Made by a program: the position numbers and the translations under genes. From Hemibagrus wyckioides (Eukaryota; Chordata; Actinopteri; Siluriformes; Bagridae): DNA of 64,000 nucleotides. The stretch covers positions 9,134,780 to 9,198,779 of the forward strand of contig NC_080710.1 of assembly GCF_019097595.1 (NCBI RefSeq), in the 5' to 3' direction. Below, piece after piece: positions 65 through 62,890 of the stretch. How positions within the stretch are numbered: position 1 is the first letter of the stretch; each line of letters opens with the position of its first letter. The notes under the pieces were generated by a model, which worked only from the letters and a program-made list of their open reading frames with translations, searched no databases and had not been told where the DNA came from.

Positions 65-1551
65 TTATATTACCATACTTATTTTAAGTCCTGAAATTTC
101 CTTAAAAGTGTTCACGAAAACATCCACAAAATCTGAGTTTGGGATTGAGTTTGTATGTATGCGCAGAACCTGTCTGTGATAGCAAACAGTGACCTTACAG
201 AAGTTATTTAAAGCTAAGGTTTCTAGTTCATTCAGAGCCAGACTGAAGATAAATTTGGTGAGTGGACACCCAGGCTTCAACAGTCTGAGTTCAGAAGAGT
301 CTTCTTCTTCAGGGAGCAGGTAATCCAGAATGCTGAGCTCTGGTGTGAGGGCAAAAGAGATCTGGTCTGGCTTCTTCACCTCAAGTTGTAGCATTTTAAG
401 TTTACTCTCAAGGAAAGACCACTTGATTGTTTGTGGGCCTCTCTCAAATGTCACAGTGAAAAATGGATCAAGATTTGTCACTATCTTTCTCTTAAATAAA
501 GGGGAAATGGACTCACTGAGACGCTTTGCTAAAATCTGTGATAATATTAAATCCTTAACATCAAAGGTGTGTCCTACATCTTTCTTCTTTATCACTGAAT
601 TGTATTCAGTCTTTAAGGTCTCGGACAGTTCACAGCGATGCTGTTTATAGTATTTCACGTCTTTCATATCAAGTGAGTACTCTTCAAAGTCAGTCAAAGA
701 CTTAATGGCACTCAGAATTTCTGCCCCACTAATGTTCCATGGTCTTCTGTCAGGTGTGTATGTAAAAGGCTTAGACAACTTTAAGGCAACCTTTGGGATG
801 TTTGTTTCAGTTCTGCACTGAACTGTGAGTTCTAGCACAAGAGGATAATGATCAGAAATATCCTGTAGTTCAGCATCCTCGTTCGCTACATTAATATTAG
901 CCACCCGTTCCATTTTGTGCTCTGGCAGGAAAAACATGTCTATCCTGGAGTGACTATCATTCTGATGTCGTGTAAAGCCATCTAAAGTAGGGTGTTTGTA
1001 TGACCAGGTGTCTCTGAGATTGAGGGAAACAGTAAAATCTTCTAAAAAAGCTCTCAGTGGTGAGAGCTTGAAGGTTGAAGACCTCCGATCAAAGCTGGGA
1101 TGTAAAACTGTGTTGAAATCTCCTCCAACCACTAGCAGACCCTCAGCTGTTTCCATCAAATACTCTTTCAGTCTACCCAAGACATTTTTGTCTGCCTTAT
1201 GATTGTACACATTAACAAGAGTGAACAGTTCACCATACAGATTACAGAATAGCACAATGTAACCTCCACTGTAGTCCTCATCATGACATATGTACTCAAA
1301 TTGTACGCTGTCTCTTATCAGTATTGCGACTCCTTTGCTTTTCGAGCTGTACACAGTGAAGTAGGATCTCCAGCCTTCAACATCTTTCAGGATGTCATCT
1401 TCTATCTCAACATGTGTCTCTTGTATGAAGGCAACATCAGCATGAAGGTTACTAAGGCTCATCAACAATTTTTGGAACTTTTTTTTAATACCATTTGTGT
1501 TCCAGGAGACAAAATGGAGACTTGATTGTGTCATTATTAATGATTGAACTT
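65..1551 (-). CDS. E1: LINE-derived EEP endonuclease with inactivated RT-like C-terminus (main exon)
   Basis: The exon starts after a splice acceptor (polypyrimidine then CAG, AG at 1553-1552). The first ATG is at 1534, giving 489 residues. Residues 8-235 form an AP-endonuclease/EEP domain of LINE-1/Tx1 type: WNTNG (11-15), QETH (38-41), GGDFN (137-141), SRID (196-199) and SDH (227-229), so the usual metal-binding and catalytic positions are kept. Residues 271-489 align by eye with a LINE RT: AEILSAIKSL, ILAKRLS, a motif-A-like block at 361-376 ending KWSFLE, GCPL (422-425) and a motif-C position reading YHRQ (452-455). The catalytic aspartates of motifs A and C are absent. The RT lacks its normal fingers and thumb length. 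Inferred role: a host nuclease or nucleic-acid binder co-opted from a LINE. The open frame continues upstream through a TA repeat, which is intronic and not coding. Paralogues E2-E6 are in the same orientation. Confidence 0.75.
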
Positions 1552-2048
1552 CTGAAAATAAAATACACACACAATTATTTAATACACAATCTTTATATAT
1601 ATATATATATATATATATATATATATATATATATATATATATATATATAGATATATACTTTCTGTCGTTGTATTTTGTATATGTAAAACCAAGAGACTTA
1701 TCTAGCAATCTTGAATTGAAAACTTTTGTAAAAGTAAAATAACATACAGAATATAAGACACAATTATATATTATATTATTATCTGTGTACTATATGTTAT
1801 GTTAAGCCAAAATAACTATATTACCTTGTTGAAAATGTACTTTTGGCTCAGAAGTCAGCTGGTGGTACAAATATAAGAAATTAATAAATACATATTTAAG
1901 CAATTATGATATAAGGCTTCAGTTAAGTCTACATTATTACATCTTTGTATTTTTCAATCAGGTGTATGGTGTTCACAGACACACACACACACACACACAC
2001 ACACACACAGAGATTAGTTAATCATTAATCATCTTGGGTTACATTTAC
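1552..2048 (-). other. E1 intron with (TA)n and (CA)n repeats
   Basis: Sequence upstream of the E1 acceptor. It contains a (TA)n tract at 1594-1649, a 34-nt exon-like block at 1825-1858 and a (CA)n tract at about 1979-2008. The whole stretch is matched by the E6 flank at 62775-64000, apart from the Tigger-like insertion and hairpin there. Confidence 0.7.
1825..1858 (-). other. 34-nt exon-like block upstream of E1
   Basis: On the minus strand the block is preceded by CACCAG and followed by GTAATA, as an acceptor and donor would be. The same 34-nt block with the same borders occurs at 47276-47309 (E4) and 63816-63849 (E6). It has no stop in the frame that joins in phase to the main exon. Transcript evidence would be needed to call it an exon. 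Confidence 0.4.
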
Positions 2049-2330
2049 TGTCACAGACTGCTGGACAGTTCCCTGGCAGAACACCAGAGAGCAGTCTGGC
2101 AGGGTTTCTTTATGTTCCCTTGTGCTTTTGTTTACGTTGTGTTTGCACATGTACTTGCCCCAACCGATCCTGCCTCCCTTTCCCCACCTCTTCACCTGTT
2201 CCTTATGTTTCAATAATTACCTTCCCTATATATACCTGCTGTCTTGTGCTTTAAGATAAAACGCTTTTGCTCACAAGGATTAATGGAACATTGTTTATTG
2301 TGTAAGGTCATTATCCCTGATTATTTAGTA
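2049..2330 (+). mobile_element. Decayed Gypsy-type LTR
   Basis: Begins TGTCACAGACTGC and contains the layout of fish Ty3/Gypsy LTRs: a central promoter-like TATATATACC, a R/U5 part and a downstream TTGGTGGAG that could be a primer-site remnant. The internal pol fossils that follow support the call. The end is approximate. Confidence 0.5.
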
Positions 2331-3300
2331 TATTTGGTGGAGTTTAAAAACAGCACCCAACAAAGCCCTTCGATGTGGAGGTGAACATCTCTGAAACAGG
2401 AGTTGGGTTCTGTCACAGCGTTTCAGGAAGATGCCAAAGCTCAATACTGTGGCCTTCTTTTCCTGGAGGCAGTCTACCCAGTGAGCACAATTACAACATT
2501 GGAAATTGAGAACTGCTAGCCATCAAGTTGGCTCTGAAGGAGTGGGAGACACTGGAGGAGGTTGAACAGCCACCTGTGAATGGCCCAGTACCCAAAGCCG
2601 CAACAACCCTGCTGGTCTCTGTTTTTTGACTGCTTACATTTCACTCTGTCCTATCACCCCAGCTCTAATGCTAAAGCAGGTTTTCTTTCCTGCTCCATTC
2701 TGCTGGGTCCTGAGCCCATTCCTCAACTGAACACACACACAGTGCATCCATTGACAACTGGACAGTCATTCGGCAGGAACATGCACTCCTGTCCTCCTCA
2801 TGAGCTCTTTGTTCCCAGCTGCCTACGTATCAATGCATTTACACTCTGCTTAGGTACTGGTGGCACATTGACTCATCCAGTTGAAGGTCCCTCAAGCCAT
2901 GTCTGTAACTAAGTTAATCCCACTGCCCACAACCCAATGGCCCTTGTACGACAGAGCCATAGATTTCCTAACCTTCTGAATCCCAAGGTATTACCATCAT
3001 TCTTCTTATCATAGAGTAATTCTCCAAGTCACTTTCCAGACTCATCTCTGCCTTGACTATAGCCAAATTTCTCTACACCTGTTTTTTGCTTCCAAAAGCA
3101 GAGGACACAATAAGTGACTAGGGTCCACAGTGGAATTGACCTCACTTCCAGGTTTCAGGTATCCAGAAACTATTGGTCATATCCAGAAATTTAACCAGGA
3201 GGTCAGTAGATTTATTTGAAACTTTCTGATACAAATATGATTGGGCCCAAATGTTGCCATGGGCTGTAAGCCCAAAACTCACTATTGACACTTCACCTCA
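2331..3300 (+). pseudogene. Ty3/Gypsy pol fossil (RNase H region)
   Basis: Broken reading frames resemble Gypsy RNase H. Around 2440-2470 a frame reads KLNTVAFFSW, around 2515-2560 one reads ELLAIKLALKEW, and 2600-2690 encodes a stretch ending in HFTLSYHPSSNAKA, where a Gypsy pol has its W-LFF...SYRPGS...KADALS block. Many stops and frameshifts interrupt it. Past about 2750 I cannot recognise pol. Confidence 0.6.
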
Positions 3301-3573
3301 TAGCTTACCCTTTTCCATTGCATGCTGGGGTACCACCTGCCCTATTAGAAATTTGAAAGGATTCTTATTTCCTGGACTACAAACTTTTGCAAATGTACAA
3401 ATGTGACAAGTGGAATTGTCTAATTGATCCACAGTTTGTAATTAATCTAAAATTCAGTATGAAAACAAATCTGAACTGACCCTGAACTGGACTGAAGTAT
3501 TCAGTGTGAACACACCCATAGTGTACAGTACACTGTGTAATGTATTGGCATCTCTTTGTACAATGAGCCTTAC

Positions 3574-61985: not shown

Positions 61986-62082
61986 AGGAGTTTCACCAAA
62001 ACTTTCCCCACAGACCTGCTCCTCGTCCGAGGGAGCACCCTCGACGACGAACACCTGGAGATGTTTCTAGATGGGGGGGTTC

Positions 62083-62452
62083 TGTCACTAGGCAGCCTGG
62101 GCCTGAACACCAGAGGGAGCCATCGCCCGAATATTAACCATCTCTGCCCACTTCCGGTACAGAGGTGTATTTAAGCAGCTCGCCACCTTCACTCAGTTGC
62201 GAAGCATTGTTTCCGTTTAGCGTTACTTGCCAAGCCTTGATTCAGTTCCTGTTTAGCTACTTCATGTATGACCTTGCCTGTTTATTCTCTTTGCTACGAG
62301 TTTCGGATTTGCGTTTTTGACTAGTTTGCTGAGTGTTAGTTTTCTGGTACTTGACCCTTGCTTACGTTTCCTTGACTACGATTACCTGTCTTCTGTTCTT
62401 CAATAAATCTGCTGATGGATTCTAATACACCGGCGCCTGACGAGTCCTTACA
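62083..62452 (+). repeat. Gypsy 3' LTR
   Basis: Preceded by GATGGGGGGGTTC as purine tract. AATAAA at about 62402-62407 (changed to AGTAAA in the 5' LTR). Confidence 0.95.
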
Positions 62453-62744
62453 TCACCATACAGTTTACAGAATAGCACAATGTAACCTCCACTATAATCC
62501 TCATCATGGCGTATGTACTCAAATGGTACGCTGTCTCTTATCAGCATTGCGACTCCTTTGCTTTTCGAGCTGTACACAGTGAAGTAGGATCTCCAGCCTT
62601 CAACATCTTTCAGGATGTCATCGTCTGTCTCAACATGTGTCTCTTGTATGAAGGCAACATCAGCATGAAGGTTACTAAGGCTCATCAACAATTTTTGGAA
62701 CTTTGTTTTAATACCATTTGTGTTCCAGGAGACAAAATGAAGAC

Positions 62745-62890
62745 TTGATTGTGTCATTATTAATGATTGAACTTCTGAAAATAAAACACACACAATTATT
62801 TAATACACAATCTTTATATAAAGATTGTGTATTAAATAATTGTGTGTGTGTTTTATTTTCAGAAGTTCAATCATTAATAATGACACAATC
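62745..62890. repeat. Near-perfect inverted repeat around the E6 acceptor
   Basis: Two arms of about 72 bp around a centre at 62817/62818 (TCTTTATATAAAGA). Each arm holds the start codon, splice acceptor and intron end of the gene, so a second acceptor-plus-ATG faces outward on the plus strand. Arms differ only by one CA unit. E1 has only one arm at the same site. Confidence 0.9.

What the first reader, a model, noticed from the sequence alone, without database searches (positions are those of the whole stretch)
65..62774. Multicopy family of LINE-derived nuclease-like genes (E1-E6)
Six related minus-strand main exons lie within 63 kb. E1, E2 and E4 are open for 489, 506 and 517 codons although E2 is strongly diverged from E1/E4. 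Indels between E1 and E4 are in frame. The protein has a LINE-1/Tx1-type endonuclease and a reduced RT-like tail. The copies share introns and upstream exon-like blocks, so they are duplicated genes and not LINE inserts. I know of no described gene family of this form.
Basis: partly seen in the sequence, partly recalled or inferred. Interest (0 to 1): 0.88.

Follow-up and report, generated by a model that had tools for sequence, protein, structure and literature searches.

The report
Fish nuclease genes tamed from LINEs
In a catfish, about twenty neighbouring copies of one gene encode what looks like a DNA-cutting protein taken over long ago from a jumping gene, whose copying half seems dead; relatives occur in zebrafish, carp and salmon, so this appears to be an old, uncharacterised host gene family.

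Summary
E1, E2 and E4 are open for 489, 506 and 517 codons; E3, E5 and E6 are broken. In a whole-genome search all 26 matches of at least 47% identity lie in one 234-kb locus, on one strand: by my count 20 gene units, 11 intact. The other 57 rows are 25-36% identical and cover only the endonuclease part. So this is a tandem gene array, not a dispersed element. Two non-coding 5' exons with conserved splice sites precede the coding exon. Homologues of about 500 aa occur in catfishes, characins, cyprinids, loaches and salmonids. The endonuclease site is kept; the tail is a shrunken reverse transcriptase without its catalytic aspartates in 68 aligned proteins. Diverged copies show purifying selection (omega 0.45-0.65) with about 15% of codons near 2.1; E1-E4 alone is near neutral (0.94). 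I read it as a host family domesticated from LINE ORF2: an endonuclease on a dead-RT platform. Restriction of mobile elements is plausible but unproven. Ten open-access literature searches found no description.

The parts
65..1551 (-). E1 coding exon (exon 3): acceptor at 1551, ATG at 1534, stop at 65-67, 489 codons; intact
3574..3684 (-). E1 exon 2, apparently non-coding (stops in all three frames), bounded by ACAG and GTAAG
4701..4760 (-). E1 exon 1, 3' end (donor GTAAGTT after 4701; the 5' limit is not known, 60 nt shown)
8880..10417 (-). E2 coding exon (exon 3): acceptor at 10417, ATG at 10400, 506 codons; intact
11103..11216 (-). E2 exon 2, apparently non-coding
11714..11773 (-). E2 exon 1, 3' end (donor GTAAGTT; 5' limit not known, 60 nt shown)
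24119..25682 (-). E3, broken copy: endonuclease and tail in different frames
44338..45908 (-). E4 coding exon (exon 3): acceptor at 45908, ATG at 45891, 517 codons; intact; the copy modelled by AlphaFold2
48062..48156 (-). E4 exon 2, apparently non-coding
51415..52947 (-). E5, broken E2-type copy with frameshifts and a TATC repeat expansion in the tail
57178..58417 (-). E6, 3' part of a broken copy
58418..62452 (+). LTR retrotransposon inserted in E6: 371-bp LTRs 98.4% alike, 5-bp target duplication TCACC (not part of the gene)
62453..62820 (-). E6, 5' part of the coding exon

Best explanation
What it is (shown by computation): a host gene family domesticated from ORF2 of an L1/Tx1-type LINE. 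Each gene has two non-coding 5' exons and one coding exon for a protein of about 500 aa: an L1-type endonuclease with its active-site residues kept (residues 1-247) joined to a compressed reverse-transcriptase core (about 275-502) that keeps fingers and palm elements but has lost the catalytic aspartates. In this catfish it forms one tandem array of 20 units (11 intact) that grows by segmental duplication, probably exchanges sequence by gene conversion, and decays by frameshift and insertion. How it works (inferred, about 0.35): the endonuclease nicks DNA, and the dead-RT part serves as a binding module for nucleic acid or for a partner such as LINE ORF2p or its RNA, so that the protein competes with or poisons target-primed reverse transcription, a trans-dominant restriction factor against LINEs or other invaders. 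The confidence given is for the domesticated nuclease with a dead RT, not for the restriction role.
For: One locus: 26 of 83 rows at 47% identity or more, all in C1:9110604-9344722; the other 57 at 25-36% and within query residues 3-284. Splice sites kept between diverged copies; exon 2 has stops in all frames in E1, E2 and E4. 92 and 98 homologues, mostly full length, in otophysans and salmonids; 26 family endonucleases one clade against 10 LINE rows of the same genome and one Latimeria protein (97/95). Endonuclease positions aligned with the L1 site kept in 66-68 of 68 at 11 of 12 positions, the twelfth (R156) in 61. Tail aligned with human ORF2p RT; tail model best matches L1 ORF2p RT; no Asp in 68 rows at the three columns aligned with the L1 catalytic Asp. 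AlphaFold2 pLDDT 88.3, pTM 0.89. Omega 0.45-0.65 in 12 of 15 pairs; M2a over M1a 2dlnL 10.77, 0 of 200 null simulations as high. LINEs 99.5% alike on two chromosomes of the same genome, so likely recently mobile.
Against: No transcript, protein or activity was seen. E1-E4 omega 0.94 cannot be told from neutral, and E4 against the copy at -12.9k (0.73) neither. Nine of the 20 units are broken. Lower synonymous divergence in codons 101-150 points to gene conversion, which can mislead codon tests; one tree only was used; without codons 95-165 the M2a signal falls to 7.45, and in the tail alone it is 2.66. The two RT pieces are each weak (i-Evalue 0.019 and 0.0022); the whole-model match to ORF2p has TMq 0.41 and rmsd near 25; the tail-only model has pLDDT 68. 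Nothing found links the protein directly to LINEs.
Confidence: 0.85

Rival explanations
1. A domesticated nuclease as above, but used for another nucleic-acid task (DNA repair, germline or cytosolic DNA processing, antiviral defence) and not for control of LINEs.
For: Conserved endonuclease site; fold shared with APE1 and ExoIII; nothing in the data ties it to LINEs.
Against: Positive-selection signal and copy-number turnover look more like a conflict gene than a housekeeping nuclease; this is inference.
Confidence: 0.4
2. A scaffold or decoy: the endonuclease does not cut, and the protein only binds LINE RNA, ORF2p or target DNA as a dominant negative.
For: The RT half already lacks its catalytic residues; a dominant-negative mode is discussed for L1TD1 (PMC4161310, passage seen).
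Against: Residues aligned with the L1 endonuclease site are kept in 66-68 of 68 proteins at 11 of 12 positions, which a pure decoy would not need.
Confidence: 0.12
3. A decaying pseudogene array without present function.
For: 9 of 20 units broken; E1-E4 omega 0.94.
Against: 11 intact frames of about 500 codons; omega below 1 in 13 of 15 pairs; full-length homologues at 36-50% identity in distant fishes.
Confidence: 0.06
4. An active or recently active non-autonomous LINE-like element.
For: LINE-derived protein; many copies.
Against: All close copies in one locus and on one strand; shared flanks and exons; no A run of 10 or more in 600 nt after the frame in six copies; no ORF1-like sense frame of 150 aa within 5 kb upstream of E2 and E4, and for E1 one frame of 163 aa that lies in an interspersed repeat.
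Confidence: 0.02

Closest known systems
LINE-1 / Tx1-group ORF2p (non-LTR retrotransposon)
   Same: Endonuclease family, fold and active-site residues; RT fingers and palm still recognisable.
   Different: About 500 instead of about 1,200 aa; catalytic RT aspartates lost; spliced 5' exons; one locus; no ORF1 seen.
L1TD1 (mammals), called in 2014 the only known domesticated gene made almost entirely from a LINE-1 (PMC4161310; abstract and passages seen)
   Same: Host gene made of LINE coding sequence; positive selection; proposed defence role.
   Different: L1TD1 derives from ORF1 and has no ORF2 homology (PMC4161310, passage); this family derives from ORF2, sits in fish and is multicopy.
p97Bcnt/CFDP2 of ruminants (recalled, no call supports it; the term p97bcnt occurred in 0 of the 10 papers listed)
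   Same: Recruited a LINE endonuclease-domain piece.
   Different: There a fusion with another gene, from an RTE/BovB LINE; here the whole protein is LINE-derived.
APE1 / exonuclease III (Exo_endo_phos)
   Same: Same superfamily fold; UniProt names several members 'exodeoxyribonuclease III'.
   Different: Profile score much better to L1 endonuclease (3e-24 to 4e-26 for endonuclease-only chains) than to APE1 (about 2e-7); carries an RT-like half.

Membership tests
Functional LINE (L1/Tx1) ORF2 | APE-type endonuclease with catalytic residues | tested here: met
   66-68 of 68 at 11 of 12 positions, 61 of 68 at the twelfth; the L1 residue labels are recalled
Functional LINE (L1/Tx1) ORF2 | RT with catalytic aspartates (motifs A and C) | tested here: not met
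   no D in 68 rows at the columns aligned with ORF2p D600, D702 and D703 (that these are the catalytic ones is recalled)
Functional LINE (L1/Tx1) ORF2 | Dispersed copies in the genome | tested here: not met
   26 of 26 close matches in one locus; only the best candidates are scored there
Functional LINE (L1/Tx1) ORF2 | ORF1 upstream and A-rich 3' end | tested here: not met
   upstream frames for E1, E2, E4 only; A runs for six copies
Functional LINE (L1/Tx1) ORF2 | Target-site duplications around copies | not tested
   copies share flanks; boundaries were not searched systematically
Domesticated transposon gene | Coding sequence of transposon origin | tested here: met
Domesticated transposon gene | Fixed locus, not mobile | tested here: met
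   in other catfishes several members share a contig length, e.g. 4 of 4 in Neoarius and 7 of 9 in Ictalurus punctatus, taken as the same chromosome
Domesticated transposon gene | Conserved homologues and purifying selection | tested here: met
   exception E1-E4
Domesticated transposon gene | Expression | not testable with these tools
   no RNA data held
L1TD1 | Derived from LINE ORF1 | tested here: not met
   the protein aligns with ORF2p
APE1/ExoIII DNA-repair nucleases | Closest to AP endonucleases by sequence | tested here: not met
   L1 endonuclease scores far better

The most novel reading that the evidence does not exclude
A vertebrate host has turned the whole enzymatic protein of a LINE into a standing, multicopy restriction system: an active L1-type nickase carried by a catalytically dead reverse transcriptase that recognises LINE ribonucleoprotein or target DNA, kept across a large part of teleost fishes and driven by an arms race in the endonuclease half.
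Probability: 0.3. Interest if true: 0.92.

Novelty: new variant of a known kind. Interest (0 to 1): 0.78.

Why it matters
L1TD1 was called the only known domesticated gene made almost entirely from a LINE-1 (PMC4161310, 2014, abstract). Here is a second kind, from the enzymatic ORF2, apparently old and still amplifying, with homologues in zebrafish, carp and salmon where it can be tested. It makes testable whether hosts keep LINE enzymes to fight LINEs, and it offers a natural reverse transcriptase that lost its catalytic residues but seems to keep its fold.

Tried and rejected
Active or non-autonomous LINE: rejected by the genome-wide search. LINE hallmarks: no A run of 10 or more in 600 nt behind six copies. 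Pfam for the tail: no family in the window proteins, RVT_1 in 4 of 68 members, so profile and fold comparison were used. Viral structure library: the 50 rows shown of 692 are mainly Exo_endo_phos proteins, none better than the L1 rows. Nucleotide gap counts for diverged pairs: too noisy. First calibration of the selection test gave only 2 simulations; repeated with 200. Alternative tree shapes for the codon models were not tested. Flanking genes: no systematic result; one ephrin-like exon by eye. Second homologue search by alignment: no further fish order among the named rows. Literature; mostly returned papers on 'domesticated lineages' and is weak evidence. Seen of papers: abstract and passages of PMC4161310, passages of PMC3424704, PMC8616336 and PMC5753468, otherwise search listings.

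Rows dropped: of the 92 proteins, 68 were aligned as A2; several partial, short or long models were left out. 26 family rows (25 of them models of near-full length, plus P0031 trimmed) went into the tree; P0092 was left out. In the codon models 6 of the 11 intact copies were used: four further E2-type copies are near-identical and the copy at -12.9k is a mosaic; the sixth copy is cut at 482 codons.
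Full report
Where the window lies. The window is contig C1:9134780-9198779 of a 789.7-Mb genome. So the species is very probably Hemibagrus wyckioides, a bagrid catfish.

The copies. E1, E2 and E4 are intact (489, 506, 517 codons); E3 is frameshifted; E5 is broken and carries a TATC repeat; E6 is split by an LTR retrotransposon with a 5-bp duplication. Fetching 200 kb around the window showed the same gene on both sides. A whole-genome protein search gave 83 rows: 26 at 47-100% identity, all on the minus strand of C1:9110604-9344722, and 57 at 25-36%, all within query residues 3-284, that is the endonuclease with at most its linker. 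I count 20 gene units, 11 with an intact frame (the last, at 9343412, judged and a partial fetch) and 9 broken. Five intact copies are E2-type at 98-100% to P0030; four units are split at about the same place with LTR-element frames between the halves, so blocks with an E2-type and an E6-type gene were probably duplicated.

Gene structure. Diverged copies share two upstream blocks at different distances. Block 1 ends in a GTAAGTT donor in five of the six copies aligned; E4 aligned poorly there. Block 2 is bounded by ACAG and GTAAG in six of six aligned copies (E1, E2, E4 and those at 95k, 121k, 195k) and is 95-114 nt in E1, E2 and E4; in these three it has stops in all three frames. The coding exon starts at a conserved CAG acceptor 17 nt before the ATG in E1, E2 and E4; in E3 and the copy at -12.9k the region before the ATG differs. 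This is a three-exon gene with two non-coding exons, by sequence; no RNA was seen.

The protein. Residues 1-247 are an L1-type endonuclease: PF03372 in 68 of 68 members, solved relatives led by human L1 ORF2p, positions aligned with the L1 active site conserved in 66-68 of 68 at 11 of 12 positions and in 61 of 68 at R156 (the L1 labels are recalled). The rest is a compressed RT. The family profile aligns 270-371 to human ORF2p 444-560 and 373-507 to 588-738 (each piece alone is weak, i-Evalue 0.019 and 0.0022), and the R2 RT chain 8c8j is matched at E 1.1e-6. In that alignment L1 D600 falls on residue 373 (T in 37 of 68, D in none), and the motif C box FADD falls on C-[Y/F/H]-[Q/H]-R: the two aspartates correspond to residue 464 (Q 26, H 21, D none of 68) and 465 (R 64, D none). 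AlphaFold2 with 68 sequences gave pLDDT 88.3 and pTM 0.89. Foldseek's best matches for the whole were human ORF2p chains (E 2.4e-20, but TMq 0.41 and rmsd 24.9, so the domains are placed differently) and for the endonuclease L1-EN at about 2.5 A. The tail alone, modelled from 8 sequences at pLDDT 68, matched first the L1 ORF2p RT (E 1.3e-5, TMq 0.55); the six rows at E 0.001 or better are L1 ORF2p, three DRT9 chains, an R2 protein and a retron chain.

Distribution and origin. 92 homologues and 98 by profile: the named ones are catfishes, characins, cyprinids including Danio rerio, loaches and salmonids; a Latimeria protein matches only in part. In a tree of endonucleases 26 family rows form one clade against 10 LINE rows of the same genome and the Latimeria protein (97/95); catfish rows group together with characins next to them, and salmonid rows fall at more than one place, which suggests old duplications. 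The LINE sample is narrow, so the parent LINE stays open. An origin before the split of otophysans and salmonids, over 200 million years ago (date recalled), follows if inheritance was vertical.

Selection. Pairwise ML omega: E1-E4 0.94 (not different from 1); E1 and E4 against the copy at -12.9k 0.64 (LRT 4.6) and 0.73 (not significant); the 12 other pairs of six copies 0.45-0.65 with omega 1 rejected (LRT 8.8-34.7). Over six diverged copies M0 omega is 0.58; M1a puts 46% of codons at 0.12; M2a adds 15% at 2.1 with 2dlnL 10.77, reached by 0 of 200 simulations under M1a. The signal sits in the endonuclease (10.3, against 2.7 for the tail). Caution: one tree only; dS in codons 101-150 is 0.21-0.35 in six diverged pairs against 0.40-2.02 (one window saturated) in windows of codons 301-500, which points to gene conversion, and the copy at -12.9k is a mosaic of an E3-like start and an E1-like rest. 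Conversion can mislead such tests; without codons 95-165 2dlnL is 7.45.

Mechanism. Shown by computation: LINE ORF2 origin, endonuclease site kept, RT catalytic residues lost, RT fold recognisable, tandem birth and death. Inferred: it nicks DNA; the dead RT is a binding platform. Less sure: it acts against LINEs. For this speak the mix of constraint and positive selection in the cutting half, the copy-number turnover, and LINEs in the same genome whose ORF2 is 99.5% identical on two chromosomes, so likely recently mobile. L1TD1 offers a precedent for a LINE-made gene under positive selection with a proposed defence role (PMC4161310). Against it stands that no direct link to LINEs was found; other nucleic-acid tasks are about as likely.

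Novelty. Database names are 'uncharacterized protein' and 'exodeoxyribonuclease III'. Ten searches of an open-access library gave no description; subscription papers and preprints were not searched. Domesticated LINE genes are a known kind; one made from both enzyme parts of ORF2, with the RT dead and the endonuclease kept, is to my knowledge a new variant.

Noticed in passing
window 32690-41018, + strand: Endogenous-retrovirus-like stretch with gag-, pol- and env-like frames, the pol part in several frames (labels by eye, recalled; only observed).
   Followed up: no
window 15532-19478, - strand: A different LINE in pieces: RT and endonuclease frames and an upstream frame with a GDSI esterase-like motif, CR1/L2-like by eye (labels recalled).
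   Followed up: no
window 27089-28090, + strand: Tc1/mariner-like transposase frame, open for 333 codons (label recalled).
   Followed up: no
window 5278-6283, 29665-30619, 42717-43715: Interspersed repeat of about 1 kb, 94-99% alike in three places; it holds the only 150-aa sense frame upstream of E1.
   Followed up: partly
window 8501-8653: Second partial copy of the tail just downstream of E2, 92% like E2 9313-9465.
   Followed up: no
codons 101-150 of the family (E4: window 45442-45591): Synonymous divergence lower than in each tail window in six diverged pairs: gene-conversion tract or constraint on the DNA itself.
   Followed up: partly
L017 2339-2773: Ephrin-like exon by eye, about 33 kb from the outermost gene unit; possible synteny anchor.
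   Followed up: no
L009 3499-7125 and L010 3569-7195: Two LINEs on different chromosomes with 1208-codon ORF2 frames 99.5% identical in DNA, so likely recently mobile.
   Followed up: partly
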